From the NCBI GenBank assembly GCA_929200255.1, contig CAKMYZ010000016.1, forward strand, positions 1 through 64,000: a stretch of DNA of 64,000 nt, read 5' to 3'. A program made the position numbers and the translations under genes. Below, one piece after another: positions 1 to 27,868 of the stretch. The DNA is from an uncultured Alphaproteobacteria bacterium. Lineage in GTDB: Bacteria; Pseudomonadota; Alphaproteobacteria; Rhodobacterales; Rhodobacteraceae. Numbering within the stretch: position 1 is the first letter of the stretch; each line of letters starts with the position of its first letter. Below the pieces are notes generated by a model. That model made no database searches, was not told where the DNA came from, and was given only the letters and a program-made list of their open reading frames with translations.

Positions 1-8
1 ACTCTCTC

Positions 9-404
9 TTAAGTTAAGCTGCCATTGGTTCCAAAAACCCTGACGACGGACAGGTTGGTGCTGTCCCGTATTGGAACCCGCTTTTGAAGTAGCACGCGGA
101 TCGGTTCAGCGATTTTTGTGCTACCAGTCCGCTTAGGAGATTGCGATTGGGTCTGACTTTCTATCGCCTGCCTTTTTGCATGATAGCTTTTTCTAAAGAT
201 AGTGACCCAGGCAGCAGCAGCAAACAGCGCGACGCACCAGACAAAAACAAGATTCAATGGGGATGAACTGACAAATGCGAAAACAATGCTTGCCAAAACA
301 GCTACTACTCCCCAAGGACGCTTGAGCAAGAGGCAGATCGTGACGAGCACCGTGAGTGAGAGGGTCAGTATCAAGTCTATTGTTTCCGTCAAATTTAGCT
401 TCAT
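9..404 (-). CDS. Small membrane protein of unknown function
   Basis: 131 residues, no family recognised. The N-terminal half holds three hydrophobic stretches (about residues 10-28, 30-48 and 51-70) that would span the inner membrane. The C-terminal half is polar and basic (KRTGSTK, QKRVPIRD) and probably cytoplasmic. The ATG at 402-404 is preceded only by a weak AAAGA, so the start is uncertain. It stands alone at the window edge, divergent from the next gene. The regular hydrophobic pattern argues that it is coding, but no function can be inferred. Confidence 0.5.
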   Translation of the reverse strand: MKLNLTETIDLILTLSLTVLVTICLLLKRPWGVVAVLASIVFAFVSSSPLNLVFVWCVALFAAAAWVTIFRKSYHAKRQAIESQTQSQSPKRTGSTKIAEPIRVLLQKRVPIRDSTNLSVVRVFGTNGSLT

Positions 405-783
405 ATTCTTTGCGTTATCATTATCGTAATGGCAACAAGATTAAACATCAAACGGCTCTTTCGCAGGTAGGGCGCAACTTGAAAACAGCCCTTCATGATG
501 GTTGTGGCATCGGTGACTTTGGGCTCTTTTTCCTCTTTCGCCGCGTTGGGAACGAACGGCAGCAAACCCGAACAGGGCTTAGAGTGTCATTTCGCCCCCT
601 CCTGCAAACGACCCCTCAAAGCCCAAGGTCAAACCGATCAGCGCAAAGAATGGGTATAAAAAACTGGGCGTCGCCCTCCCGGCGCTCCGTCAAAGATGGA
701 AGGATACTACGAAAGACGGCGCGCAGAACGGGCCGCCGAGCAGCAGACTTGACCCCGCCCGTAGATGCTTTCTACTGGCATTC
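405..783. other. Gene-poor interval
   Basis: An open frame runs through 356-787 on the plus strand, but its product is low in hydrophobic residues, rich in Arg/Ser/Gln and has no good ribosome site, so I do not call it. I see no repeat, RNA gene or terminator here. The promoters of the two divergent flanking genes should lie in this stretch. Confidence 0.4.
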
Positions 784-1221
784 ATGAAGCACTCTGAACT
801 ACACGCCATTGCCCACAATTTTGCCGACTCTCTGGCATGCGGGCATGGTTTCGTCATTGGTTATTATGCAACGGATATCTTTGGTGACGCTTCGTCCAGT
901 CCAGGATCTTTCCTTGTGGTGGATTTTTTAAGCGGTCAGCTGGCTGAAGGCACGGCATCAGAACAGCTTCATGGTGCCCTTCCGATTTTTCGAAACGAGT
1001 TTGAGAACTTCTGCCAGAAGCACGGTTCTTCAGCTTCTGACTTTATCGAATTTACGACTCGGTTCGAAACCGGACACCTTGGGAACCGCTACATCGTCAC
1101 AATCGAGGATGCACGGGGACGCAAGTCCTCAATCGAGTACGAAGGCATTCCCGGCAGGCGGGCCAAAATGCGCAATGATCAAAGGCGTGTTGTTCCCAAC
1201 AAAACCGTTCTCAAACGCTAA
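784..1221 (+). CDS. Conserved-looking hypothetical protein
   Basis: 145 residues, soluble, no signal peptide or membrane segment. It has a balanced composition, with alternating polar and hydrophobic residues in the middle (DFIEFTTRFETG) and a basic C-terminus (RRAKMRNDQRR). I recognise no domain. There is no clear Shine-Dalgarno before the ATG at 784. The gene is isolated between a gene-poor stretch and repeat remnants, so it may be part of an accessory insertion. Function unknown. Confidence 0.45.
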   Translation: MKHSELHAIAHNFADSLACGHGFVIGYYATDIFGDASSSPGSFLVVDFLSGQLAEGTASEQLHGALPIFRNEFENFCQKHGSSASDFIEFTTRFETGHLGNRYIVTIEDARGRKSSIEYEGIPGRRAKMRNDQRRVVPNKTVLKR

Positions 1222-1525
1222 CCGCAAAGCCAGCCAGGGCTGCGATATGTGAGGTCTCCGCCCTGTCAGGCTTTGCTACCCTCAGCTCCCTTGGTGACAT
1301 TTCTGCTTTGCACAACCGGTGACATTTCTACTTGGTTGCAACATCAGTATTACTGACCTATATGCCCTGTTCCAGCAATTGAAGCCCATCCCTGTCTGAT
1401 GGCAATCGAGACATCGCGGCCGTTCGCTGCGGGAAGTACGAATTCGCAAGATGCGGACTTTGCGGCCATTCGCTGCGCTCGCGCCAATGACCGCTTCAAA
1501 GTAAATACTATTTCAAGCCCAGCAA
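1222..1525. other. Intergenic stretch with repeat remnants
   Basis: No convincing gene. It contains a tandem GGTGACATTTCT repeat (1293-1333) and a second near-direct repeat: GCGGCCGTTCGCTGCG at 1416-1431 and GCGGCCATTCGCTGCG at 1462-1477 (one mismatch in 16). Such scraps suggest decayed mobile DNA between the hypothetical gene and the TetR module. Confidence 0.5.
1293..1333. repeat. Tandem 16-bp direct repeat, possible worn transposon end
   Basis: GGTGACATTTCTGCTT (1293-1308) and GGTGACATTTCTACTT (1318-1333) differ at one base and are 25 bp apart. Repeats of the GGTGACATTTCT type are, from memory, found at the ends of IS481-like elements in related genomes. No transposase fragment is visible nearby, so the assignment is tentative. 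Confidence 0.4.
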
Positions 1526-2101
1526 TCACCGGGAAACATTTTCCACCATACTCTTCACAGCGCGTCCTGCAGACAGAATGTATTCGGGGTCATGATGCAC
1601 AAGAACAGTTGAGAACGCGCCATCCATAAGCAGAACGATATGCCTGGCCAATTCGTGGGGCTCTTCTATTTTGCGCTCCTCGAACTCACCCAAAAGCCAT
1701 GCTTCAAACTTCTTTTTGTGCGCAGCCCCAACTTTCATGGCGGGGTGGCCTGGCATGTTTGCCAACTCCGCAGCGGTGCGCAGGAAGCCGCAGCCCTTCC
1801 ATTTGGGGTGACGGGCGGACTGGGCCAAGTTCAGGAAAATTGCCTCAATTTTGTCGGGCAGTTCACCATCGGCCTCATCAAACCATTTTTTGAAGAGTGT
1901 TAGATTGGGCTGGTCGCGGGACGCGAGATACGCAGCGATCAAATCATCCTTGCTCTTGAAATGGTAGTAAAGCGTCTTCTTTGTAAGATCGGCCTTTGCA
2001 GCGATAGCATCCACGCTGACAGCGCGAATGCCTTCGCTATAAAACAGGCGGTTTGCAGCATCCAAAATGCGATCTTTGGCGGGGAGGTTTCCTGACGACA
2101 T
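1526..2101 (-). CDS. TetR/AcrR family transcriptional regulator
   Basis: 191 residues from the ATG at 2099-2101. An upstream in-frame start at 2134 would add 11 residues but would place the predicted operator inside the gene. The N-terminal DNA-binding domain is clear at residues 10-58, with the helix-turn-helix around DAIAAKADLTKKTLYYHF. The C-terminal ligand domain is typical in length and belongs to no group I can name. It is divergent from the enoyl-CoA hydratase and DUF1330 genes, with an inverted repeat between them. The natural inference is that it represses that pair and itself and responds to an acyl-CoA or related metabolite; the ligand is unknown. Confidence 0.88.
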   Translation of the reverse strand: MSSGNLPAKDRILDAANRLFYSEGIRAVSVDAIAAKADLTKKTLYYHFKSKDDLIAAYLASRDQPNLTLFKKWFDEADGELPDKIEAIFLNLAQSARHPKWKGCGFLRTAAELANMPGHPAMKVGAAHKKKFEAWLLGEFEERKIEEPHELARHIVLLMDGAFSTVLVHHDPEYILSAGRAVKSMVENVSR

Positions 2102-2107
2102 GACTAA

Positions 2108-2129
2108 GTATACTATACAGTGAGTATAC
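2108..2129. promoter_or_regulatory. Predicted TetR operator (inverted repeat)
   Basis: Perfect inverted repeat: arm GTATACT (2108-2114), 8-bp spacer, arm AGTATAC (2123-2129). It lies 6 bp upstream of the regulator start and about 50 bp upstream of the divergent enoyl-CoA hydratase. Size and position fit an autoregulatory TetR operator controlling both directions. Confidence 0.65.
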
Positions 2130-2177
2130 GTCAAATCTGCGCGTTGCTATGGTCTTTGAAACTGAATGGAGACCGCA

Positions 2178-2969
2178 ATGCCGGACCTGATAACCTACGA
2201 ACAAAAAGGGGCTATCGCCCTTCTTACCTTGAACCGACCCGAGAAGTTGAATGCGCTCAATTACGCAACAAATGACCGTTTGCTTGCGTTGCTCGACGCT
2301 ATCGAAGCCGATCCGTCCATCAGATCTGTCGTTCTGACCGGAGCCGGGGATCGGGCATTTTCGGCAGGTGGCGATATTCACGAATTTACTGAAAGCGTTA
2401 AAGCAGGCATCGACATCGCTGTGAGAGAGTTTTGCAAGCGCGGCCAAACCATGACTGCCAGACTGGAAGCGTTCCCCAAACCGATCATTGCGGCTGTGAA
2501 CGGCATCGCGTTCGGAGGAGGGTGCGAGTTCACTGAAGCCGTTCATCTCGCGGTGGCAAGCGAAGACGCGGTCTTTGCGAAACCGGAGATCAACATCGGG
2601 ATTCCACCAACATTTGGCGGTACGCAGCGGTTGCCGCGACTCGCGGGACGGAAGCGGGCGCTGGAACTGCTCCTGACCGGCGATACTTTTTCTCCGCAGC
2701 GGGCGTACGAGATGGGACTGGTGAACAAGGTTGTCCCGCATGACCAGTTGTTGCCAGCCGCATTTGATCTGGCAGAGCGTATTATCCGGCATTCTCCTCT
2801 CGCGGCGTCACGCATTATCACCGCTGTGACCAGAGGCATCAATACGACGATCGAAGAAGGATTGCTGATAGAGCGCGAACAGTTTGCACGGATGGCAGCT
2901 ACCAGCGACGTTCATGAAGGTTTGAATGCATGGATCGCGCGGCGGACACCAGAATACAAGGGGGTTTGA
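2178..2969 (+). CDS. Enoyl-CoA hydratase/isomerase (crotonase) family protein
   Basis: 263 residues, usual for single-domain crotonases. The start at 2178 is preferred over 2166 because GGAG (2168-2171) sits six bases before it. Oxyanion-hole sequence FSAGGDIHEF is at about 62-71. GIAFGGGCE carries the first catalytic glutamate (E117), and PEINIGIPPTFGGTQRL the second (E137), so hydratase chemistry on enoyl-CoA is plausible. It is coupled to a DUF1330 gene one base downstream and probably controlled by the divergent TetR. The substrate cannot be told from sequence. Cytoplasmic. Confidence 0.9.
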   Translation: MPDLITYEQKGAIALLTLNRPEKLNALNYATNDRLLALLDAIEADPSIRSVVLTGAGDRAFSAGGDIHEFTESVKAGIDIAVREFCKRGQTMTARLEAFPKPIIAAVNGIAFGGGCEFTEAVHLAVASEDAVFAKPEINIGIPPTFGGTQRLPRLAGRKRALELLLTGDTFSPQRAYEMGLVNKVVPHDQLLPAAFDLAERIIRHSPLAASRIITAVTRGINTTIEEGLLIEREQFARMAATSDVHEGLNAWIARRTPEYKGV

Positions 2970-2970
2970 C

Positions 2971-3399
2971 GTGAAAGACAATCAATTTCATACGAGCTTC
3001 TCGAAAGAGACATGGGAGCGATTCAAAGCGGCTCAGCGGTCTGGGCCGATCCACATGCTGAACCTTATCAGGCTGTGTAAGGACGCTGAATATTCAGATG
3101 GACGTGCCTCTAAAGGCGCAGACGCCTACAAGGCCTACAGTGATATTAGTGCGCCGGTGTTTCAGAAACTGGGTGGTAAGATCGTTTGGCGCGGCGGACA
3201 TGAATTGATGATGGTTGGTCCGCAGCTTGACGTCTGGGACATCGCCTTTATTGCGGAATATCCAAGCGTGCAGTCCTTTCTGGACATGTTGAAGAACGCG
3301 ACCTACCGCGAAGCAATGAGCCATCGGCAAGCAGCAGTGCTGGACAGTCGATTGGTGAGGTTTTCAGCAGATGCCAATGGCACCAGCTTCGCTGGATAA
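2971..3399 (+). CDS. DUF1330-like protein
   Basis: 142 residues from a GTG at 2971, one base after the stop of the enoyl-CoA hydratase and preceded by a G-rich ribosome site (2961-2964). An ATG start at 2926 would overlap the upstream gene by 44 bases and add an unlikely N-terminus. IHMLNLIRLCKDAEY, AYKAYSDISAPVFQKLGGKIVWRG and the AFIAEYPSVQSFLDML segment followed by a Y..A..HR motif match the ferredoxin-like DUF1330 fold. It is longer than the roughly 95-residue minimal domain. Function unknown; tight coupling suggests it works with the hydratase. Confidence 0.75.
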   Translation: MKDNQFHTSFSKETWERFKAAQRSGPIHMLNLIRLCKDAEYSDGRASKGADAYKAYSDISAPVFQKLGGKIVWRGGHELMMVGPQLDVWDIAFIAEYPSVQSFLDMLKNATYREAMSHRQAAVLDSRLVRFSADANGTSFAG

Positions 3400-3437
3400 T
3401 TTTGCCGCTCAATGAACCAACGCGATGAAACTCGCTC

Positions 3438-3980
3438 ATGAAGAACAAAGGAATGCAATATGATACCCTTGCGTTGATTGGGTCACTGCTGATTGCTGTG
3501 TCGGCAAAGATCAAGGTGCCCATGTGGCCTGTTGATATGTCGCTTCAAACGTTGGCGATATTCACGATAGGGGCTGTTTTTTGGTTTGAAGCTCGGTCTT
3601 GCAACGATATTGCTATATCTCGCAGAGGGCGCGTTGGGGTTTCCCGTCTTTCAAGGAACACCGGAACGTGGAATAGGTTTCGCGTATATGGTTGGCCCAA
3701 TCGGGGTTATCTTGTCGGTTATGTTCTGATGGTGGCAATCACTGGATGGACGGCAGATCGAGGATGGTGGCGCAACCCATCCAAAATCGGTGCTGCGATG
3801 TTTGTCGGTGAATTGATTTTGCTGATGTTTGGAGCACTGTGGCTGACGTATCTTTTTGGTGTGCCTCAAGGGATCGCTTACGGAGTTGGGCCGTTCGTCT
3901 TTCCTGTTATGCTGAAATTGGCATTGGCCGCAGGGATCGTTTCAGTTCTCGGAAACGTGGTGCGGTCAAGGCTGCAATAA
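3438..3980 (+). pseudogene. bioY: BioY biotin transporter gene with two compensating frameshifts
   Basis: Both ends match BioY, the membrane substrate-binding (S) component of ECF-type biotin uptake: KIKVPMWPVDMSLQTLAIFT near the N-terminus, then RGYLVGYVLMVAITGW and GPFVFPVMLKLALAAG. The middle reads as nonsense in frame, but frame +1 between the T6 run at 3577-3582 and the G4 run at 3703-3706 restores FGLKLGLATILLYLAEGALG and VFQGTPERGIGFAYMVGPIG. One extra T and one missing G explain this and leave the frame open at 180 residues. About 41 residues, including a membrane segment, are replaced, so the product is probably non-functional unless these are sequencing errors. No biotin regulatory site is visible upstream. 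Confidence 0.85.
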
Positions 3981-4109
3981 AGGTCATAAACATCTCCCAA
4001 AGTGGGATCTTTCTGCCGTCCGTCGCACTGGAGCGAGAGACCGCTTACAACAACCTTACGGTTTGCCGTACATCCATGTCGATGGTTTCAGCTGACTCCA
4101 AACCGAAAC

Positions 4110-5003
4110 TCATACGCCAACTGAAAAGTGGTTGATGAACGCCCGCAGTTTGCTCATATTCTTTAGCTGCTTTGGAAAATAAAGATAGAATCTTGGACGG
4201 TTTGGCGTGTACGTAGGCAGGACTTCGACCAACTCACCTGAGATGATCTCCACCTCAATCCCTGCGCGAAGCGACCAACCAATGCCGAAGCCCCGCATGG
4301 CCGCATCTATCACTGATCTGAGGTCGTTAAAGACCATTCGTCCGGAGACATCGACCTCAACCTCTGCGCCATCCACCTCAAAACGCCAAGGTGCTACCCG
4401 CTGTGCAGTGATTTGGCGATATCTGATGCAGTCGTGTTGCAGAAGGTCAGCCGGTTCTTTGGGTGTGCCGTTTTTTCCCAAGTATGCGGGGCTGGCAACA
4501 TAGGTCCCATCAAGCGGCGGCGTGAGGGCGACCGCGATCATGTCGTCTGTCAGAAAGTCGCCCAACCGGATACCGGCATGAAAACCACCAGAGACGATAT
4601 CCGTCAGTTCCTCATCTATGGAAAAGTTCAGCTCGATATCAGGATACTTTGATTGAAACGCAGCCATACGTGGGGCAAGGGCCAGTTGCCATGCGCGATA
4701 GGGCAATGTGATCCGCAGCTGGCCTGATGTGGTGAGTGCGGCACGTCGCGTCGCATCCAACGCAGCATCAACCTCACCCAAAAGGTGATGTGTCCGCGCG
4801 CGCAACGCCTCACCGACATCGGTGAGCGACACCGACCTTGTATCGCGCACGAACAACGCGCTGCCAAGCACGTCTTCAAAGGCCTTCAGCCTTTGCGATA
4901 CTGCGGACGGGTTTACGCCAAGCTCATGCGCTGCCGCTCGCATTGTACCGTGCTCCACGATGGCAAGAAAGGTCTGTAACCCGCTCAGGTCAGCACGATT
5001 CAT
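4110..5003 (-). CDS. LysR family transcriptional regulator
   Basis: 297 residues, standard LysR length. The winged helix-turn-helix fills residues 1-62 (AAHELGVNPSAVSQRLKAFE, ALFVRDTRSVSLTDVGEAL). The effector-binding domain, from about 90, keeps the usual QLRITLPYRAWQLALAPRMA and a GFGIGWSL segment. It resembles the subgroup in which LTTR proteins act on neighbouring transport or redox genes. It is divergent from an EamA transporter with a 94-bp gap containing a perfect inverted repeat, so it probably controls that transporter. Inducer unknown. Confidence 0.9.
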   Translation of the reverse strand: MNRADLSGLQTFLAIVEHGTMRAAAHELGVNPSAVSQRLKAFEDVLGSALFVRDTRSVSLTDVGEALRARTHHLLGEVDAALDATRRAALTTSGQLRITLPYRAWQLALAPRMAAFQSKYPDIELNFSIDEELTDIVSGGFHAGIRLGDFLTDDMIAVALTPPLDGTYVASPAYLGKNGTPKEPADLLQHDCIRYRQITAQRVAPWRFEVDGAEVEVDVSGRMVFNDLRSVIDAAMRGFGIGWSLRAGIEVEIISGELVEVLPTYTPNRPRFYLYFPKQLKNMSKLRAFINHFSVGV

Positions 5004-5014
5004 TATGTAGCCTG

Positions 5015-5033
5015 TCTAATCATATTGATTAGA
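5015..5033. promoter_or_regulatory. Inverted repeat, candidate LysR binding site
   Basis: TCTAATC (5015-5021), 5-bp spacer, GATTAGA (5027-5033): perfect 7-bp arms. It lies 12 bp upstream of the lysR start and 64 bp upstream of the divergent EamA gene, the usual place for a LysR site. Confidence 0.55.
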
Positions 5034-5097
5034 TTATACTGGATATCCAAACAAACCAAGCTTGCTATTTTAGGCCTTCTTAAGAGAAAGCCTGACC

Positions 5098-6045
5098 ATG
5101 ACCAGCATTACACCAGCCCCGCGCTCCGTTACATCGGGGATCATCACGATACTGCTCACCGTGTTTGCGATGGCCTTGACGGATGCGTTTGTGAAGTTCG
5201 CCAGTGCGGATATGACGCTTTGGCAGATATATGTATGTCGTTCGGTGCTGGCGCTTCCTGTCCTCATGTTCCTCGGAAAGGGCCGCCTGAAGCCTCAGGC
5301 GGTGGGTTGGGTCACTGCGCGCAGTCTTGCGTTGGTCGCGATGTATCTTGCAATCTACGCGGCCATCCCCTTGCTCGACCTGTCAGTTATTGCCGCGTCG
5401 CTCTACACTGGCCCTCTATTTATCGTTATTTTGTCAGCAGTGTTCTTGCGTGAGACGGTCGCGGTTGTGCAGTGGATTGCCGTCGCATTAGGCTTCGTCG
5501 GTGTGCTATTTGTTGTGCAACCAAGCGGAGCCGGTTTCAACGCATTATCGCTTATCCCGATCATCGCCGCTTTTCTCTACGCGGTTACAGCAGTTCTGAC
5601 CCGCGCCAAATGCGCCCACGAGGCTCCGGCAACTTTAGCTGTCAGCTTAAACGTCGCGTTGGTTGTCTTTGGTGGTGTCGCAAGCCTTTGGTTGGTCGCA
5701 TCCCCATCAGAGCATGCGGTTTCGTATCCGTTTCTATTCGGCCAGTGGTCTAATCTGAATCTACGAACCATAGGTATCCTGATCGTTATGGCAGTACTGA
5801 TCGTCGGGGTCAGTATCGGCCTCGCGCGTGCCTATCAGTCCCCGCGTCCGCAAGTCATCGCCACATTTGATTACGCCTATCTGATCTTCGCAGCGTTCTG
5901 GGGGTTTGTATTCTTCCGCGAAGTTCCTGAGCTTTGGACGATAGCAGGAATGGCGCTGATCATTGCAGCAGGTGTGCTTGTCCTGATCAGCGGTAGTGCG
6001 CCAAAGCAATCTAAACTGGATAAGTTGCCAGAGTCGGGAATCTAG
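5098..6045 (+). CDS. EamA/DMT family transporter
   Basis: 315 residues with about ten hydrophobic helices arranged as two EamA repeats (about 15-145 and 160-295). The repeats carry typical helix-end motifs: ASLYTGPLFIVILSAVFLRE in the first and FDYAYLIFAAFWGFVFFREV in the second. Members export small metabolites such as amino acids, nucleosides or drugs by an unknown gradient mechanism; the substrate cannot be assigned. It is divergent from a LysR regulator that likely controls it. The polar C-terminal tail (GSAPKQSKLDKL) is cytoplasmic. Confidence 0.88.
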   Translation: MTSITPAPRSVTSGIITILLTVFAMALTDAFVKFASADMTLWQIYVCRSVLALPVLMFLGKGRLKPQAVGWVTARSLALVAMYLAIYAAIPLLDLSVIAASLYTGPLFIVILSAVFLRETVAVVQWIAVALGFVGVLFVVQPSGAGFNALSLIPIIAAFLYAVTAVLTRAKCAHEAPATLAVSLNVALVVFGGVASLWLVASPSEHAVSYPFLFGQWSNLNLRTIGILIVMAVLIVGVSIGLARAYQSPRPQVIATFDYAYLIFAAFWGFVFFREVPELWTIAGMALIIAAGVLVLISGSAPKQSKLDKLPESGI

Positions 6046-6138
6046 GACAAAGAACCGAAACGCAATCATGTGGGAAACGGAATACCGCCCCGCGTCGACT
6101 TCAATACCAGGCAGCGTGATGTGAACAAAGAAGCGACC

Positions 6139-6441
6139 TTAGACAACATTCGCACGTCTCAGTCTCGCAACTTCGTAAGGATCAAGCCCGAGGTCTTTCA
6201 GTATTTCGTGGGTATGCTCTCCTAGCCCGGGACCTGTACGTCATAGTTCTGATGTTCCGCTGATCCGCGGGACGACGGCGGGAGCGGGGATCGACCCGAG
6301 CTCATTGTCTTCCAATCGGATGAACGCCTTTCGGAACACAAACTGAGGGCACTAGATCACGTCTGAAATCGAATTTACTTTAATGTACGGAACTTCGCAT
6401 CCCTCCAGAGCCGAAGCCAGTGCATTGAAAGAGTGTGATGC
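6139..6441 (-). pseudogene. Remnant of a CaiB/BaiF family III CoA-transferase gene (3' end only)
   Basis: Reading the minus strand gives SFNALASALEGCEVPYIKVN, then after an in-frame TAG FVFRKAFIRLEDNELGSIPA and PAVVPRIS, then after an in-frame TGA GPGLGEHTHEILKDLGLDPY and a TAA at 6139-6141. This is the typical C-terminus of family III CoA-transferases (VPxxxVN, PQF, RLEDxELG, PGLGEHT). The catalytic N-terminal two thirds are absent and two stops interrupt the rest. It is a dead gene fragment beside repeats at 6456-6653. Confidence 0.8.
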
Positions 6442-6455
6442 GGCTGATTTTGTTT

Positions 6456-6653
6456 AAAAACTCCGAATTTTCAGATGTCGTAATTTTTCGAAAAGAACCC
6501 GTGATACCGAAAAGTCAGATTAGATTTGCCATTAGGCCCAGTGAGCTGCCACATGAGCGGCAGAAGGCCAATTTGGCCGAACCCCTCGCCTTGAAAATTT
6601 GGTCGCGCTGTACGGACAAAAATCTTACCGATTTCGCCAAAAACGGAGTTTTT
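6456..6653. repeat. 198-bp segment bounded by 10-bp inverted repeats
   Basis: AAAAACTCCG (6456-6465) and CGGAGTTTTT (6644-6653) are exact inverted copies at the ends of an AT-richer, apparently non-coding segment. It abuts the CoA-transferase fragment and could be a miniature inverted-repeat element or the scar of a transposon. No target-site duplication is clear. Confidence 0.4.
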
Positions 6654-6758
6654 CAACAGTATCGGCCCAGTTCGCTCATTGCGAGACAAACCTACCGTTT
6701 GTCTGATAATCTCATATGGAAGTAAGTCTGATAACTAAGAGTTTGGAGATGGATCGTA

Positions 6759-7157
6759 ATGCCACAGCCAATCACTGGCGGATGCATGTGCGGCGCTTTG
6801 ACCTATCGCGCTGATGCGGAGCCTATCAATGTTCGGGTTTGCCACTGCATGCTCTGCCAGAAGTCGACCGGCGCGCCTTTCTTTGCGCGCGTTCAGGTAC
6901 CACTAAATACTATCCAGATTTCTGGTCCGGTACGTTGGTTTGCCTCCTCGACGCAAGTCGACCGAGGGTTTTGCGAGAGGTGCGGCAGCACACTCTTCTC
7001 AAAAAGAGAAAGAAAGAATGTGATCGGTTTGGGCTTTGGCAGTCTTGATAACCCAAACAACTTTAGTCCCCAAGAACACATTTGGGTTTCTGAGCAGCAG
7101 ACCTGGCTTCGCTTTGCAGATGATCTGCCGATCCATACGGGTTCAGCACCAGACTGA
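6759..7157 (+). CDS. GFA (glutathione-dependent formaldehyde-activating/CENP-V) family protein
   Basis: 132 residues. The zinc-binding cysteines of the family are all present: C9/C11 in GGCMCG, C28/C30/C33 in CHCMLCQ, and C72/C75 in CERCG. The fold is a small beta sheet around two zincs. Family members are usually called glutathione-dependent formaldehyde-activating enzymes, but most are uncharacterised and this one may not act on formaldehyde. A GGAG precedes the ATG by about a turn. It is the last gene of the accessory left end and has no obvious operon partner. Confidence 0.88.
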   Translation: MPQPITGGCMCGALTYRADAEPINVRVCHCMLCQKSTGAPFFARVQVPLNTIQISGPVRWFASSTQVDRGFCERCGSTLFSKRERKNVIGLGFGSLDNPNNFSPQEHIWVSEQQTWLRFADDLPIHTGSAPD

Positions 7158-7393
7158 AGCACGATCATGTATCTTGAACAATTACTAAAGTTCTGGCGGA
7201 CCATAACAACAAACCCAGATTTACAGTGCTTTTCTATGGTCCCGTTAGCACGATTCCGACGGCGGGTAGACTTCGAACCGTCAGGCTAGAAGGGAAGCCG
7301 TCATTCGACCAAGCTGTAGCATCAGTTAGTATGGGCTCTTTGCAGACCTTAGCCAAATATTGACACCAATCCGTCGAGGTGAGGAACGGCACG

Positions 7394-21226: not shown

Positions 21227-23776
21227 TCATACCCGCTCTGCGAGGGCCAGCTGGGCGGCGGTGAGTCGCGCAACGGGCACGCGAAACGGTGAACAAGAGA
21301 CATAGTCGAACTTATGCTGCCGACAGAAATCAATGGCTGAACGCGTGCCGCCATGCTCGCCACAAATCGCCAGAACTACATCGGGGCGCCCCAGGCGCCC
21401 GCGCTCTGCGCCCAGCGAAATCAACTCGCCCACCCCTTCGATATCAAGGGTGTGAAACGGGTCTTCGGCATAAACACCTTGCTGGACGTAGGACGACATG
21501 AAACGGCCTGCATCATCGCGCGACAGTCCATAGGTCATCTGGGTCAGGTCATTGGTGCCAAAAGACAGAAACTGGGCGTGTTCTGCAATGTCCTGCGCGC
21601 GCAACGCCCCGCGCGGTGTTTCCACCATGACGCCCAGGCGGTATTCCGCATGTGTCCTGGTGCGCGCCCAGACCGCATTGGCCACCCCGTCGATGCGGGC
21701 CTTCATCAGTTCGACCTCGCGCATGGCGCTGACAAGCGGGATCATGATCTCGACCTTGATCGTGATGCCTTTCTTGCCCACTGCCACCATCGCTTCAAAA
21801 ATGGCGCGGGCCTGCATGTCGTAGATTTCAGGGATTGCGATCCCCAGGCGCACGCCGCGCATACCCAACATCGGGTTATATTCAGTCAGCGCGTCTACCC
21901 GTTCGGCCACCTCCGACAAAGGCAAGGCCACCTGTTCGGCCAGATCACGCAGGCCTGCCTTGTCCGAAGGTAAAAATTCATGCAGCGGCGGGTCAAACAG
22001 GCGAACGCAGACGGTTTTGCCTGCCATATTCTCAAACAAGGCCTGAAAATCGGCGCGTTGCATCGGCAGCAGGCGATCCAGAACCGCGCGCCTGTCATCG
22101 CTTTCTTCGGCAAAGATCATTTCGCGCATGACGCCAAGACGGTCACCGTCAAAGAACATATGCTCTGTCCGGCAAAGCCCGATACCTTCGGCGGCAAAAT
22201 TGCGCGCGGTCTGCGCGTCGGCAGGGGTGTCGGCATTGGCACGCACGCCAATGTCGCGAAATTCATCTGCCCACTCCAGAAGCGTGCCGAAGGCACCATC
22301 AAGTGCGGCCTCTAACATGGGCGGCTCGCCCGCAAGGACCTGGCCAGTGGTCCCATCCACGGTAATCCGGTCGCCAGTGCGGAATGTGCGCCCGTCCGGG
22401 CAGATAATCCGCCCCTTCTTAAGATCAATCGCCAGATCAGAGGCACCCACAACACAAGGCAGCCCCAACCCGCGGCCAATGACGGCGGCATGGCTTGTCA
22501 CACCACCGCGCATCGTCAGAACGGCCTGGGCTGCATGCATCCCGCGGATGTCTTCGGGCGTGGTTTCGCGGCGCACCAACACGCAGGCCTCGCCACGCGC
22601 GGCACTGGCCTGGGCATCCTGTGCCGTCAGAACGATGCGGCCAGTCGCAGCACCGGGGCTGGCAGCAATCCCATTGACGATCACATCACGGTCCGCGTCA
22701 GGGTCGACCTGACGGTGCAGCAATTCTGACAGGGCCGCAGGTGCAACGCGCATCACGGCCTCTTCACGCGGGATCACCTGATCCTTGGCCAAGGCTACAG
22801 CGATAGCGACCGAAGCACGCGAAGACCGCTGCACCCGGATCGCATCCAATATCTGGACAACACCGTCGTGCAGGATGAACTTCACTTCCATCTCTTCGCG
22901 CAACTTGCGGCGACAGATATCACCGTAAGACACCAGTTGTGCATATTGCGCAGGACAAAGATCTTCGAGCGACGGACCGCGCGGATCGCGCGTCAGGTAA
23001 ATTGCGCCCTCGGCATCGGGGGCCACATCGCGGCCCCTGATCTGACCTTCGCTGACATAACGGCCAATGATCTTGGCCTCACCCGATGTGCTATCCACAA
23101 ACTGAATAACACCCTGCCCGCTTTCGCCTGCGCCCATGCCAATGGCCATGGTCTGCACCACCAGACCAAGCCCCGCATCAACCGGTGCGCCCTTGGCTTC
23201 GCGCAGCAGGCGCGCGGTTGTCCCGTCCCAGGCCCGCGCCATAGAGCGTAGCACTTCGGCCAGTTGCACCGAGACATCCTGCGGAAACGGTGTATCGGTT
23301 TCAAACTCAAAGGTATTCAGCATCGCCTGCAGGCTGGCCGCATCGGCAACGTCAGGCATGTAGAATTCATCAGGGTCCAGACGGGCAACGTGGATCGCAT
23401 AAGACTGGATGAAACGCAGATACATCTTGGTGGCGGGCTCTGCCCCCATCCGATCAGACAGCATGGCGTGACATGCATCATTCATGCCGACGTTCAGAAT
23501 GGCACCCGGCCCGCCCCAGTCAGGGTTCAGACTGGACGGGCGCACCGACAGCAGCGGGTCGGGACCGAAAGGTGCCAGCAGTTGCGCCATATCAGGCAGG
23601 TTGCCCAATGCCGCCTCACGCACCGCATCAAATGACAGCGCGACCGTCATAGGCACCGGCATATCCAGGCGGATCAGCCGTTGCAGGCATTTCGCCCGTC
23701 CGCCATGCACCGCCGCCGACATGGGCGCAGTTGGTGTGATCAGGGTCAGCGGACCATATGTTGACTGTTGCTGCAC
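21227..23776 (-). CDS. PEP-utilising enzyme, pyruvate phosphate dikinase-like, altered ATP site
   Basis: 849 residues with the three PPDK parts in order. The swivelling domain has the phosphohistidine H429 in GGVTSHAAV. The PEP/pyruvate barrel has GLCRTEHMFF, GMRGVRLGI, FGTNDLTQMTYGLSRDD (739-754) and C805 in AICGEHGG, followed by VSCSPFRVPVARLTAAQ. The N-terminal nucleotide domain is divergent: GGRAKCLQRL replaces GGKGANLAEM, the FTRNPSTGE loop reads FVDSTSGE (227-233), and the IEFTI/LQxR strand reads VKFIL/LDAIR (about 298-314). It may not use ATP as a standard dikinase does. It lies 71 bp downstream of glyS, a placement I recall in related genomes. Confidence 0.82.
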   Translation of the reverse strand: MQQQSTYGPLTLITPTAPMSAAVHGGRAKCLQRLIRLDMPVPMTVALSFDAVREAALGNLPDMAQLLAPFGPDPLLSVRPSSLNPDWGGPGAILNVGMNDACHAMLSDRMGAEPATKMYLRFIQSYAIHVARLDPDEFYMPDVADAASLQAMLNTFEFETDTPFPQDVSVQLAEVLRSMARAWDGTTARLLREAKGAPVDAGLGLVVQTMAIGMGAGESGQGVIQFVDSTSGEAKIIGRYVSEGQIRGRDVAPDAEGAIYLTRDPRGPSLEDLCPAQYAQLVSYGDICRRKLREEMEVKFILHDGVVQILDAIRVQRSSRASVAIAVALAKDQVIPREEAVMRVAPAALSELLHRQVDPDADRDVIVNGIAASPGAATGRIVLTAQDAQASAARGEACVLVRRETTPEDIRGMHAAQAVLTMRGGVTSHAAVIGRGLGLPCVVGASDLAIDLKKGRIICPDGRTFRTGDRITVDGTTGQVLAGEPPMLEAALDGAFGTLLEWADEFRDIGVRANADTPADAQTARNFAAEGIGLCRTEHMFFDGDRLGVMREMIFAEESDDRRAVLDRLLPMQRADFQALFENMAGKTVCVRLFDPPLHEFLPSDKAGLRDLAEQVALPLSEVAERVDALTEYNPMLGMRGVRLGIAIPEIYDMQARAIFEAMVAVGKKGITIKVEIMIPLVSAMREVELMKARIDGVANAVWARTRTHAEYRLGVMVETPRGALRAQDIAEHAQFLSFGTNDLTQMTYGLSRDDAGRFMSSYVQQGVYAEDPFHTLDIEGVGELISLGAERGRLGRPDVVLAICGEHGGTRSAIDFCRQHKFDYVSCSPFRVPVARLTAAQLALAERV

Positions 23777-23847: not shown

Positions 23848-26259
23848 TTATGACGTGCCTTCGATCTTAGTCAGATCAGCGACGGACAGGCAGATATTCC
23901 TGATACGTGACAGCAGGTTAAGGCGGTTGCGGCGCAAAACCTGACTGTCGGCGTTCACCTGCACATCGGTGAAAAAGGCGTCAATTGGCCCGCGCAGTGC
24001 GGCCATCGCTGTCATCGCCGTACTGAAATCTTCCGCATCCATCGCTGGGGCGATCTTTGTCTCCGCCGCATCAAGAGCAGCGAAAAGCGCCTTTTCGGCG
24101 TCATGCTCGGCGAATTTGATGTCGGCGCCATAGGAGTATTCAACGCCATCCTTTTCCTCGGCCTGGCTGAGGATGTTGTTGGCGCGCTTGAAGCCTTGCA
24201 GAAGATTTTCGCCGTCGTCAGTCGCGAGGGTTGCGGCGAGTGCCTCGGCGCGTTTGACGAGGAGGGTCAGGTCGTCGTTGCCCGGCATGGCAATACAAGC
24301 GTCGATGATGTCATGGCGGATGCCTTTGTCTTTGAGGAAGACTTTGAGGCGGTCGTGGAAGAAGGAGAGGAGGTCAGATGCGCACAATTCAACACGAAAG
24401 TTTCGCCAGCTCTCAGCTTCAGATACAAACCCCTCATAGTCACTGTAGTCCCAGACTTCGTAGGTGTCTTTCTCTTCGCTGGACATTAGTTCTTCAGCCG
24501 CAACCAGATGCGAACGGAGGAGGCTACTAATAATCTCATGCGCATCTCTTGGCGCGATGAACTCTTGGTCTTCGTCTTGCGCGAGATAAGTTAGAATTGG
24601 TGAACTCCGCCACATCTTTTCGAAGTCTTCATCTATCTTCTCTAAATCAATATCTTCGAACACAGGATACAACTTATAGGCCACAGGACCCTTGCGGACA
24701 TCATTCTGAAACAATGAACCTACTAAGTACTGGTCTAGCTCATCCTCAATATGCTGCCTTAGGTTAATTCGGATATCATTGGTTAGCAGTACTCTAAGCA
24801 CACCTAGAGCTGCTCGGCGCAGAGCAAATGGGTCCTTGGATCCCGTCGGTTTCTCATCGATTGCCCAAAAGCCAGTCAGCATGTCCAATTTGTCGGCCAG
24901 AGATAGTGCCACAGAAACTGGTAAGGTCGGCACGCCGTCAGAAGGCCCAAGCGGTGAGTAATGCTCGATACAAGCCCTCGCGATTTCCTCTTCAATACCA
25001 TCGGCTTGGGCATAGTAGCGTCCCATTGTGCCCTGTAGCTCAGGAAATTCGTAGACCATCTCCGATGCTAGATCGAGCTTCACAAAATTTGCCATCATAT
25101 CGACTTGTTCTAAGTCAGCGCCAACATATGTGGCCAACTTACTTGCCCAAAGCTCAATTCGTCGGATGCGGTCACTTTGCGTTCCCAGACGATTGTGAAA
25201 CGTAACATGGTCGAGTTTGTCTGCCCACTCATCGAAGCCATGATCTGCCTTCGCCACGCGCAGATCATTCTCCCAAAAGAACTTTGCATCCGCCAGACGG
25301 GCCGCCAGCACCTTTTGGTTGCCTGCAAGGATCGTCGCGCCATTGTCCGCCGTTTCCATATTGGCCACGGTCACAAAACGCTCAATCCGGCCCGTCTTGG
25401 GGTTGCGCACGGAAAAGAATTTCTGGTGTTCTTTCATCGAGGTTTGCAGCACCTCGGGCGGCAGGCCAAGAAAATCGTCATCGATGCGGCCCAGCAACAC
25501 GACGGGCCATTCAACCAGCCCTGCGACCTCGGTCAGCAGACCGCGATCTTCGACCATCTCAAGGCCCAGCGCAAAGGCCTGCGTTGTTGCTTCATTCCAG
25601 ATCGCCTCGGCCCGTTCATCGGCACGCAGCATGACATGGGCGCGCTTCAACTTCGCCTCGTAATCATCGAAAGAAACAACAGAAAAGGCATCAGGCGCAA
25701 GAAAGCGATGCCCTCGCGTGGTATTGCCAGAGGTGATCCCATCGATATCAAGTGGCACAACCGCCACCCCGGCTTCATCGCTGAGAATGCACAGGATGGC
25801 ATGCAGCGGGCGCACCCATTTCAGGGTCCCGGTGCCCCAGCGCATGGACTTGGGCCAAGGGAAGTTGCGGATCGCTTTTTCCAGCACCTCAGCGATAATA
25901 TCGGCAGCCAAGCGCCCTGGCTTTTCGATGACGGCAAAATAAACCTGCCCCTTTTTGTCATCGCGCACCTCAAGGTCTTCGCGCGCCACACCGGCCCCGC
26001 GCAGGAACCCTTCGATGGCTTTGTCAGGCGCGCCGACCTTGGGGCCTTTACGCTCTTCGCGCACGGGTTTGCTTTCTGCGGTCAGCCCATCAATCGACAG
26101 TGTCAGGCGGCGCGGGGTCGAGAATGCGGCGGCACCGGCATAGGTCAACCCCGCCTCAACCAGACCATCGGTTACCAGCTTACGCAGATCATCCGCTGCA
26201 CGGGTTTGCATCCGCGCGGGGATTTCTTCGGAGAAAAGTTCAATCAGAAGATCAGGCAT
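23848..26259 (-). CDS. glyS: Glycyl-tRNA synthetase beta subunit
   Basis: 803 residues, longer than the usual 690-750. The beta subunit binds tRNA-Gly in the alpha2beta2 enzyme. Recognisable are the start PDLLIELFSEEIPARMQ, FPWPKSMRWGTG, EHQKFFSVRNP, AKFFWENDL, RACIEHYSPLGPSDGVP, LADKLDMLTGFWAI, SKDPFALRRAALGVLR and a C-terminal anticodon-binding part ending LLSRIRNICL. The central part (about 350-620, bases near 24400-25200) has much lower GC than the flanks and includes an acidic insertion after LTNDIRINLRQ. The ATG at 26259 shares one base with the TGA of the preceding gene. Confidence 0.95.
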   Translation of the reverse strand: MPDLLIELFSEEIPARMQTRAADDLRKLVTDGLVEAGLTYAGAAAFSTPRRLTLSIDGLTAESKPVREERKGPKVGAPDKAIEGFLRGAGVAREDLEVRDDKKGQVYFAVIEKPGRLAADIIAEVLEKAIRNFPWPKSMRWGTGTLKWVRPLHAILCILSDEAGVAVVPLDIDGITSGNTTRGHRFLAPDAFSVVSFDDYEAKLKRAHVMLRADERAEAIWNEATTQAFALGLEMVEDRGLLTEVAGLVEWPVVLLGRIDDDFLGLPPEVLQTSMKEHQKFFSVRNPKTGRIERFVTVANMETADNGATILAGNQKVLAARLADAKFFWENDLRVAKADHGFDEWADKLDHVTFHNRLGTQSDRIRRIELWASKLATYVGADLEQVDMMANFVKLDLASEMVYEFPELQGTMGRYYAQADGIEEEIARACIEHYSPLGPSDGVPTLPVSVALSLADKLDMLTGFWAIDEKPTGSKDPFALRRAALGVLRVLLTNDIRINLRQHIEDELDQYLVGSLFQNDVRKGPVAYKLYPVFEDIDLEKIDEDFEKMWRSSPILTYLAQDEDQEFIAPRDAHEIISSLLRSHLVAAEELMSSEEKDTYEVWDYSDYEGFVSEAESWRNFRVELCASDLLSFFHDRLKVFLKDKGIRHDIIDACIAMPGNDDLTLLVKRAEALAATLATDDGENLLQGFKRANNILSQAEEKDGVEYSYGADIKFAEHDAEKALFAALDAAETKIAPAMDAEDFSTAMTAMAALRGPIDAFFTDVQVNADSQVLRRNRLNLLSRIRNICLSVADLTKIEGTS

Positions 26260-26774
26260 CAATTCTGGCTTTCAGGAGGGGGTGGGCAGTTTTCAGGAGG
26301 ACGGTTGCCGTCGAATACAACTTCGCCGCAGGCGTTGATCTGGTGCCAGGCATAGCCGCGCCCATCAGGGTAGACGGCGATGACCCGGTCGATACCATAG
26401 ACGATGTTCTCTATCCCCAGAAAGGCGATGGCATCCGCTTGCAGATCCGCCCCGATTTGTTCGGCATCAAAGCAGTCAAACCAAGGCGGGGCCACACGTG
26501 GTTCGGCCGCGTCCACAATCACAAAGGTTTCGGTCAGTGTTGCCTGGCTAAGCGGGATCTGGAAACAGGCACGGTAGCGCAGTGGGCTGCTATCGGCATC
26601 AACGCCGGCAAATGCTGTCACCACAACGGGTTCAGGCGTGCCGGTCGCAACAGAGGTCAGCATCACGGTCTCTGCCTGCACCTCTTCGTAATAGGCATAG
26701 ACCTGTTGGTAATAGAGCAGGCCACCCGCAGCGGCCCCCGTCAGAAGCATGAGCACAATGATTATCCTCGCCAT
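26259..26774 (-). CDS. Small membrane-anchored protein between glyQ and glyS (DUF6446-like)
   Basis: 171 residues. One N-terminal hydrophobic segment (2-22, ARIIIVLMLLTGAAAGGLLY) serves as signal anchor; the rest is predicted periplasmic, with cysteines at SPLRYRACFQIP, PPWFDCFDAE, QINACGEVVF and near the end, suggesting disulfides, and a proline-rich C-terminus (ENCPPPPESQN). It matches the kind of protein annotated as DUF6446 in Rhodobacteraceae, from memory. Both junctions are TGATG, with a single shared base to glyQ and glyS, so translation is coupled to the synthetase subunits. Function unknown. Confidence 0.75.
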   Translation of the reverse strand: MARIIIVLMLLTGAAAGGLLYYQQVYAYYEEVQAETVMLTSVATGTPEPVVVTAFAGVDADSSPLRYRACFQIPLSQATLTETFVIVDAAEPRVAPPWFDCFDAEQIGADLQADAIAFLGIENIVYGIDRVIAVYPDGRGYAWHQINACGEVVFDGNRPPENCPPPPESQN

Positions 26775-27694
26775 CAGGCCGCGGCCCCGCCTGCCTCTGT
26801 CTGCACAAAGGCATCCGCACAGGCCTTGGCCAAGGCCCGCACCCGCCCGATATAGGCCTGCCGTTCGGTGACAGAAATCACGCCGCGCGCGTCCAGCAGG
26901 TTAAAGACATGGGATGCCTTGATGCATTGGTCATAGGCGGGATGCACCATGATGATGTTCTTGCCCGTCTTGGGATCGTCAGCTGGCGCATCCAGAATAC
27001 GCTGGCACTCGGTCTCTGCATCCAGAAAGTGCTGAAACAGCTTATCCGTGTCAGCAACATCGAAGTTCCAGCGTGAATATTCCCGTTCAGCCTGTTGGTA
27101 CACATCCCCATAGCGCAGCGGGGTGGGTGACTGCGGATCGTTAAAGGGCATGTCCATCACGTGATCAATGCCCAGAACATACATCGCCAGACGCTCCAAC
27201 CCATAGGTCAGTTCACCCGAAATGGGTTTGCAGTCATGCCCGCCAACCTGCTGGAAATAGGTGAATTGGCTGACTTCCATCCCGTCGCACCAGACCTCCC
27301 AGCCCAGCCCCCAGGCGCCAAGCGTCGGGCTTTCCCAATCATCCTCGACAAAGCGAATATCGTGTTTGTCGGCGTCAATGCCAATCTCGGACAGCGATCC
27401 CAGATACAGCTCTTGAAAATCGGGGGGCGAGGGTTTGATCAGTACCTGATATTGATAGAAGTGTTGCAGCCGGTTGGGGTTCTCACCGTAGCGCCCATCC
27501 GTTGGCCGGCGCGACGGCTGCACATAGGCGGCTGCCCAATGGTTGCTGCCCAGCGCGCGCAGGGTTGTCGCAGGGTGGAATGTCCCTGCCCCCACTTCCA
27601 TGTCATAGGGTTGCAGGATCGCGCAGCCCTTGGACGCCCAATAGGTCTGAAGCCGCAGGATGACTTCCTGAAAACTGCGTGGTTTATCTGCCAT
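26774..27694 (-). CDS. glyQ: Glycyl-tRNA synthetase alpha subunit
   Basis: 306 residues from [12 protein letters not shown], preceded by GAGGG five bases upstream; an ATG four codons earlier is less well placed. The class II catalytic subunit charges tRNA-Gly together with GlyS. Motifs: [37 protein letters not shown] (motif 2 region with ATP contacts), [53 protein letters not shown], and [16 protein letters not shown] as motif 3. First gene of the minus-strand unit glyQ-small protein-glyS-PEP enzyme. Confidence 0.98.
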
Positions 27695-27868
27695 CGTGGC
27701 CCTCATGTGCTTGGCCCCTGCAATAGGGTGCTGCGCGGCAAGGGTCAATTAGGCAACGGATGTGGATTTAATCTGTGCAAATGCGCGTCAAACGTGCGGT
27801 TGGGCTTGCGTCTGCGTCCCGACAGCGCCAGTCACCCTAGCAAAGTTAAATTTGATACTGAGGTTTCC

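What the first reader, a model, noticed from the sequence alone, without database searches (positions are those of the whole stretch)
23848..26259. glyS looks mosaic: a low-GC central block in a GC-rich gene
Directly counted 60-base lines give 22/60 GC at 24601-24660 and 23/60 at 24721-24780, against 38/60 at 24241-24300 and 37/60 at 25441-25500. The AT-rich block runs roughly 24400-25200 (about residues 350-620) and includes an acidic insertion that makes the protein about 50-100 residues longer than usual. The frame is intact. A recombination event that swapped the middle of an essential gene is the simplest reading.
Basis: partly seen in the sequence, partly recalled or inferred. Interest (0 to 1): 0.7.

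Follow-up and report, generated by a model that had tools for sequence, protein, structure and literature searches.

The report
Hypervariable swapped block in a tRNA-charging enzyme
The middle of this bacterium's essential glycine tRNA-charging enzyme was imported by recombination and sits at a spot where related species mostly carry different, unrelated protein segments, which suggests that something keeps rewarding change in a part of translation expected to be conserved.

Summary
glyS (minus strand, 23848-26262) has a low-GC centre: GC3 0.49 in codons 337-630 against 0.67 elsewhere (p 2e-7), plus a 128-residue acidic insert. The mosaic reading is right for this genome: against its nearest relative, synonymous difference is 0.31 and 0.34 in the outer parts but 0.78 in codons 336-498, so the block was imported rather than sped up. 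Its edges, about codons 339 and 631-634, fall at the start of the HD domain and just after the insert. The larger finding is that the site is hypervariable across the genus. Of 1080 genus pairs with inserts of 25 aa or more, 3 have related inserts; of the 6 with flanks at least 90% identical, none. Over 202 genes, 171 inserts form 103 clusters. Related inserts are under purifying selection and two look recently passed between species. The neighbouring ppdK-like gene and alaS lack such variation. Best reading: a recombination-exchanged cassette in the GlyRS beta HD domain, kept diverse by selection, perhaps escape from a phage or toxin protein that binds it. The driver is inferred, not shown. 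No donor was found.

The parts
23848..26262 (-). glyS, glycyl-tRNA synthetase beta subunit; 804 codons from TTG 26262 (ATG at 26259)
   Evidence: Pfam PF02092 E 1.4e-178 and DALR_1 E 2.4e-9; one match in own genome; matches solved GlyRS beta chains
24370..25251 (-). Imported block: codons about 338-631, HD domain from its N-terminal edge through the insert
   Evidence: Synonymous difference 0.78 in codons 336-498 against 0.31/0.34 in flanks; change-points against L002 at codon 339 (336-341) and 634 (629-634), against L003 at 338 (333-340) and 631 (630-631); GC3 0.49 against 0.67
24373..24759 (-). Hypervariable insert, codons about 502-630, acidic
   Evidence: In no multi-member cluster among 171 inserts; GC 0.46; no other match in own genome at E<=10
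24322..25254 (-). HD domain, by alignment to E. coli residues 341-540 (chain numbering taken as native)
   Evidence: Alignment to chain 7yse_C with the domain limits of PMC8464048 (passages)
25255..26262 (-). N-terminal conserved part, native to the genus
   Evidence: 0.886 nucleotide identity to L002 over codons 3-350; flank tree support 99
23851..24369 (-). [quoted passage not shown]
   Evidence: 0.894 nucleotide identity to L002 over codons 631-800
21227..23776 (-). Downstream neighbour, pyruvate phosphate dikinase-like (name recalled, no family call), used as control
   Evidence: One near-full-length match in 55 of 56 genus genomes; in the 56th (G023) it is split over two contigs
26774..27748 (-). 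Upstream ORF, GlyRS alpha subunit glyQ by sequence (name recalled, no family call)
   Evidence: ORF list

Best explanation
The HD domain of the GlyRS beta subunit carries, at one fixed site between two conserved stretches, a cassette that is replaced wholesale between species by homologous recombination anchored in the conserved sequence on either side. Sometimes only the cassette changes; sometimes, as here, the adjoining HD-domain half travels with it. While a cassette stays in a lineage it evolves as a constrained protein segment. Rapid replacement in nearly every species of the genus, inside an essential gene, is best explained by selection for change: most likely a phage- or competitor-encoded protein recognises this surface of GlyRS, and carriers of a rare cassette escape. 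Shown: import of the block here, unrelated inserts between close relatives, sharing of near-identical inserts by species with diverged flanks, purifying selection within insert families, no comparable variation in two control genes. Inferred: selection for novelty, and the nature of the antagonist.
For: Synonymous difference by segment: 0.31/0.78/0.34 for this gene against L002; among 40 other close genus pairs, 15 have the HD half raised by more than 0.15 and 0 the C-terminal part (pairs share species, so not independent); in L152/L153 and L012/L014 only the insert differs (HD half 0.26 and 0.38, near flank values). Edges: left edge of this gene at codon 339 (336-341), HD start at 337. Inserts: 3 of 1080 genus pairs related; nearest flank relative has a related insert in 1 of 51, unrelated in 45, one of the two short in 5; 171 inserts in 103 clusters, 89 singletons. 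Transfer: L022/L162 insert pS 0.04 against 0.46 and 0.34 in the flanks; L147/L163 0.00 against 0.33 and 0.32; five two-member clusters join a genus member with a gene from outside the genus at 73-77% flank protein identity. Constraint: pN below pS in 9 of 10 pairs. Codon-position GC pattern and amino-acid make-up of the genus inserts resemble coding flanks. Controls ppdK-like and alaS. In two other alphaproteobacterial families, flanks 95.5% and 94.0% identical in protein carry inserts of 108/20 and 108/12 aa.
Against: No antagonist was identified. No insert is confidently like a known domain, phage protein or defence protein (87 of 158 inserts scanned). No codon-level positive selection was seen; in 7 of 10 pairs pN of the insert exceeds both flanks, so constraint is weaker there. 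The window's own insert falls on the disorder side of a charge-hydropathy score (-0.09), unlike 36 of 46. No within-species data were available. Tree topology of the HD half does not separate this gene from its sisters. No donor was found in 394 family genomes or 289 of the class. Of eight other pairs tested for a left edge, only four intervals hold codon 337, one of them very wide; one ends at 336, two end at 307 and 323, one starts at 402, so breakpoints are not always at the HD start. In the commonest insert family the GC deficit is small (0.577 against 0.620, 44 of 53 lower). Two control genes do not exclude similar sites elsewhere.
Confidence: 0.55

Rival explanations
1. Permissive loop without selection for novelty. 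The site tolerates extra sequence, recombination in this family is frequent, and unrelated inserts come and go nearly neutrally, constrained only by the need not to disturb folding.
For: The site aligns to a short segment of E. coli GlyRS, between residues 508 and 521; 17 of 166 genes have 15 residues or fewer there (length list), so a long insert is dispensable; purifying selection within families could reflect folding alone, and it is weaker than in the flanks in 7 of 10 pairs.
Against: Most genus members keep a long insert (46 of 51 with 30 aa or more); replacement is complete in all 6 pairs with at least 90% identical flanks and two long inserts; two control genes lack it.
Confidence: 0.22
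2. Species-specific partner module: the insert docks GlyRS to a different cellular partner or regulator in each species, without antagonism.
For: Constraint within insert families; the HD domain moves strongly on tRNA binding (PMC9908026, passages), so an insert could regulate it.
Against: Species with nearly identical flanks have unrelated inserts, which needs very fast change of partners; no confident domain signal in 87 inserts.
Confidence: 0.13
3. Single import in this genome only, unrelated to any special feature of the site.
For: The HD half is anomalous here and normal in L002 and L003.
Against: The insert site is hypervariable throughout the genus and the HD half is raised in 15 of 40 other close pairs.
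Confidence: 0.05
4. Accelerated evolution in place, without recombination.
For: The AU test does not reject the native position in the HD-half tree, and the tree with it scores better than the free quick tree.
Against: Synonymous sites in the HD half differ at 0.78, four-fold sites at 32 of 43, while flanks are at 0.31-0.34.
Confidence: 0.03
5. A mobile in-frame element or an assembly error produces the inserts.
For: Of 55 genus genes fetched, two (G006, G022) are broken in frame; in G006, a 3-contig genome, the break is inside the insert.
Against: 51 of those 55 read open through the insert (two more are cut by contig ends); inserts share no ends by eye; no direct repeats around the block and one weak inverted pair; no second match in the own genome.
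Confidence: 0.02

Closest known systems
Bacterial heterotetrameric glycyl-tRNA synthetase, beta subunit (E. coli GlyRS; PMC8464048, PMC9908026)
   Same: PF02092 and DALR domains in the same order; the acceptor-stem loop T-G-S-x-D-P-x-A-L-R-R is invariant in the 61-sequence alignment.
   Different: E. coli has a short segment where this gene has 128 residues. E. coli Asp474 is Ser here (the paper calls it a backbone contact). No call examined diversity at this site in E. coli, and the passages read mention no hypervariable insert.
Mosaic essential target genes, such as mosaic penicillin-binding proteins (recalled)
   Same: Imported block with sharp edges in an essential gene; escape from something that binds the product would be the parallel.
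   Different: There (recalled) the imported blocks are homologous throughout; here the core of the block is unrelated sequence from species to species, and no selecting agent is known.
Hypervariable recognition loci such as restriction specificity genes or surface antigens (recalled)
   Same: Conserved flanks, exchangeable unrelated core, many rare alleles.
   Different: Those are accessory or surface genes; this is a cytosolic core translation enzyme.
Rickettsia palindromic elements inserted in frame (recalled)
   Same: In-frame extra sequence inside housekeeping genes.
   Different: Those are repeated related elements; these inserts are mostly unrelated, and the window's has no second copy.

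Membership tests
GlyRS beta subunit | PF02092 domain plus C-terminal DALR domain | tested here: met
   E 1.4e-178 and 2.4e-9
GlyRS beta subunit | Conserved tRNA acceptor-stem contacts in the HD domain | tested here: met
   G473, D476, R481, R482 (ATG numbering, same numbers in E. coli) and R637 (aligned to E. coli R531) are invariant columns, compared with contacts named in PMC9908026; E. coli Asp474 is Ser here
Mosaic gene by homologous import | Segment with raised synonymous divergence and sharp edges | tested here: met
Mosaic gene by homologous import | Identified donor, or significantly different topology | tested here: not met
   Best match in 394 family genomes is 67% over residues 7-174 of 295; AU p 0.81
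Hypervariable locus under diversifying selection | Unrelated alleles at one site between close relatives | tested here: met
Hypervariable locus under diversifying selection | Many alleles within one species, rare-allele advantage | not testable with these tools
   One genome per species held
Palindromic in-frame element (Rickettsia type) | Related copies elsewhere in the genome, internal palindrome | tested here: not met
   One match in own genome, itself; only one weak inverted pair, its arms outside the block
Diversity-generating retroelement target | Near-identical template copy in the genome | tested here: not met
   No second match to the insert in the own genome at E<=10
Intein | Intein splicing domain | tested here: not met
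   No intein family among the 25 families shown of 26 matched by 87 inserts in Pfam at E<=0.05

The most novel reading that the evidence does not exclude
The GlyRS beta HD domain is an arms-race interface: unknown phage or competitor proteins bind it, and Alphaproteobacteria escape by swapping an unrelated cassette through recombination, making a core translation enzyme behave like a recognition locus.
Probability: 0.4. Interest if true: 0.9.

Novelty: new variant of a known kind. Interest (0 to 1): 0.72.

Why it matters
Aminoacyl-tRNA synthetases are used as conserved markers and drug targets. A site in one of them that is replaced by unrelated sequence between sister species, while the gene next door is not, points to an unrecognised pressure on translation and gives a directly testable place to look for the agent. 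It also warns against using whole glyS as a phylogenetic marker in this group.

Tried and rejected
Neutral decay of an unconstrained linker was tested by codon-position GC, amino-acid make-up and pN/pS in related inserts (10 pairs; 3 others were skipped because a partner was not in the set): 9 of 10 had pN below pS; the tenth (L147/L163) had pS 0.00 and pN 0.014. In 7 of 10 the insert's pN was above that of both flanks. Full neutrality is rejected, weak constraint is not.

Acceleration in place was rejected by synonymous divergence. The HD-half tree was inconclusive: the tree holding this gene with L002 and L003 scored 36 log units better than the quick free tree, AU p 0.81. A second AU test, of the whole genus, did not finish and was not repeated.

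A frame-shifted or inverted origin of one insert from another was looked for by nucleotide comparison of the genus inserts: only L022/L162 and L147/L163 matched at E 0.01. A match over the whole length in the Ruegeria group (L210) proved to be a gapped alignment without clear similarity in the insert. A profile of the commonest insert family found one further clear member, L135 (E 2.4e-5), among the others.

Sources of the window's insert were sought in its own genome, in phage records and in viral contigs: none. Insert plus HD half were sought in class and family genomes: only the HD half was well matched in the best hits (both listings were capped). The 15 phage-collection records holding glyS were not pursued. 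Domain scans covered 87 of the 158 inserts of 30 aa or more listed; every family shown matched one insert only, best E 0.0028 (Pfam), 0.013 (PHROGs) and 9.2e-4 (PADLOC), which I take as chance.

Rows dropped: of 56 genus genomes, 51 genes were used; G032 and G018 are cut by contig ends, G006 and G022 are broken in frame, and G023 was not fetched. In one search, 11 of 213 genes were dropped because the right-hand anchor motif was not found. In the Ruegeria group 30 of 54 genomes were read. Insert limits differ by a few residues between calls.

Literature: searches listed no title or abstract start describing a hypervariable insert in glyS (searches found no paper; some searches showed 20, 12 and 12 of 5564, 41 and 149); the library holds open-licence papers only. 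Passages, not whole texts, were seen of PMC8464048, PMC9908026, PMC8711792, PMC8521149, PMC2784778 and PMC7470980.

Full report
What was claimed.

Checking it. The gene lies on the minus strand, 23848-26262, is a GlyRS beta subunit (PF02092 E 1.4e-178, DALR E 2.4e-9), and gives one match in its own genome. The base counts are exact. Codons 337-630 have GC3 143/294 against 344/510 outside (p 2.1e-7), lower than any equally long window in 5000 codon-order shuffles. Codons are counted from the TTG at 26262.

The genus comparison. Y. litorea and Y. ponticola (Yoonia) lie on contigs of the same length as contigs of genus genomes G002 and G007, so the genus is Yoonia or close to it. All 56 genus genomes searched have glyS; 51 full-length genes were aligned. 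The parts before about codon 500 and after 630 match throughout. Between them lies an insert of 7 to 128 residues that mostly cannot be aligned. Its GC is below the mean of its two flanks in 45 of 46 cases with 30 residues or more (mean 0.478). So the low-GC insert is genus-wide, whereas the low GC of codons 351-500 is unusual: GC3 0.48 against a mean of 0.64, and the largest fall relative to the N-terminal part among 51.

The import in this genome. Flanks place the gene with L002 and L003 (support 99, end branch 0.035, quick tree of 87 rows); nucleotide identity to L002 is 0.886 and 0.894 in the flanks but 0.620 over codons 351-500. Synonymous difference is 0.31, 0.78 and 0.34 for N-terminal part, HD half and C-terminal part, while L002 and L003 differ by 0.34 in the HD half. 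Faster protein evolution alone would not saturate synonymous sites, so the DNA was imported. The edges lie at codon 339 (336-341) and 634 (629-634) against L002, and at 338 (333-340) and 631 (630-631) against L003, that is about 24370-25251. The E. coli HD domain is residues 341-540 (PMC8464048, passages); by the alignment, taking the chain's numbering as native, that is codons 337 to 647. The imported block is therefore the HD domain from its N-terminal edge through the insert. Trees do not prove it: in the HD-half tree the end branch is 0.89, but a tree holding this gene with its sisters scored 36 log units better than that quick tree and was not rejected (AU p 0.81). No donor was found: in 394 family genomes, 272 with a match at E<=1e-60, the best covers residues 7-174 of 295 at 67%; the 289 class genomes gave nothing closer.

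A recurrent process. Close pairs with unrelated inserts are the rule: L023/L026 (flanks 0.933, inserts 83 and 97 aa), L152/L153 (0.927, 86 and 11 aa), L006/L017 (0.913), L145/L147 (0.909), L012/L014 (0.907). Of 1080 genus pairs with both inserts of 25 aa or more, 3 are related; of the 6 with flanks at or above 0.90, none; the nearest flank relative has a related insert in 1 of 51, an unrelated one in 45, and in 5 one of the two is short. In the genus of G098, which I take for Ruegeria by its similarity to named Ruegeria genes, 30 of 54 genomes were read; with six named loci these gave 32 distinct genes. By eye more than half share one insert family, yet pairs with flanks of 0.93 and 0.905 have unrelated inserts. 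Over 202 genes with a definable insert, 171 inserts of 25 aa or more form 103 clusters, 89 of them singletons; the largest (53 members) spans many genera and holds one member of the window's genus, L154. In two other families of the class, flanks 95.5% and 94.0% identical in protein carry inserts of 108/20 and 108/12 residues. The HD half is also exchanged elsewhere: among 40 close genus pairs without the window gene, 15 have its synonymous difference raised by more than 0.15, against 0 for the C-terminal part. These pairs share species and are not independent. Left edges of eight other pairs vary: four intervals hold codon 337 (one of them 290-365), one ends at 336, two end at 307 and 323, one starts at 402.

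Inserts are real protein and move between species. Related inserts show pN below pS in 9 of 10 pairs, although in 7 of 10 pN is above that of both flanks. Genus inserts have the coding pattern GC1 > GC3 > GC2 and an amino-acid make-up closer to the flanks than to translated shuffled DNA (divergence 0.038 against 0.111); 36 of 46 score as folded by charge and hydropathy, but the window's does not (-0.09). L022/L162 and L147/L163 share inserts with synonymous difference 0.04 and 0.00 while their flanks differ by 0.32-0.46, as expected of recent transfer. Five two-member insert clusters join a genus member with a gene outside the genus, for example L003 with Sulfitobacter brevis (L041) and L016 with a Phaeobacter MAG (L104).

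Controls. The neighbouring ppdK-like gene gives one match from residue 8 or before to 846 or after in 55 of 56 genomes, and is split over two contigs in G023. AlaS matches its whole 847-position profile in one piece in 52 of 56, over 2571 to 2619 bases; in G020, G022, G033 and G036 it is cut or broken. So the variation is not a general property of these genomes or of synthetases, though only two control genes were examined.

What it may do. [quoted passage not shown] Named contact residues are invariant in 61 aligned sequences, apart from a backbone contact, Asp474 in E. coli and Ser here, so charging is presumably kept while the surface changes. No insert of the 87 scanned clearly resembles a known domain. 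The best-supported account is a surface cassette swapped by homologous recombination and kept diverse by selection, most simply escape from a binding antagonist. Weak outside hints: a table of phage-resistant avian E. coli has a glyS SNP row with the number 4 (column heading not seen; PMC8711792), an indel upstream of glyS arose in phage-coevolved Vibrio (PMC8521149), and glyS is a row in a Salmonella positive-selection table (PMC2784778) (passages); none of these passages claims this mechanism. I put the import in this genome at about 0.93, recurrent exchange at 0.9, selection for novelty at 0.6 and an antagonist as its cause at 0.4.

Noticed in passing
L140 (G006), both open frames: In a 3-contig genome glyS is broken by a frame change inside the insert; the conserved C-terminal part continues in another frame.
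   Followed up: partly
L162 and L163, codons about 51-125: A second divergent stretch (nucleotide identity down to 44% and 37%) in the N-terminal part against otherwise close L022 and L147; these two proteins are also 22-23 residues longer.
   Followed up: no
window 24314-24338 and 25271-25295: A weak 25-base inverted repeat (72%) lies just outside the two edges of the imported block; probably chance, as both arms are conserved coding sequence.
   Followed up: no
NZ_CP039965.1: A glyS 64% identical in protein to this one lies on a 1.58-Mb record filed as a plasmid of Pseudorhodobacter turbinis.
   Followed up: no
phage collection, hits H1-H15: Fifteen records filed as phages match glyS; two of them (H7, H9) are over 500 kilobases, named as Salmonella strains, and look like chromosome pieces.
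   Followed up: no
window 1-7200: GC is lower here (0.49-0.56) than in most of the window.
   Followed up: no
L184 and L186: Two 108-residue inserts from different alphaproteobacterial families show weak similarity (25% over 52 residues, E 0.002 in a two-sequence comparison), so some insert families may be old and widespread.
   Followed up: partly
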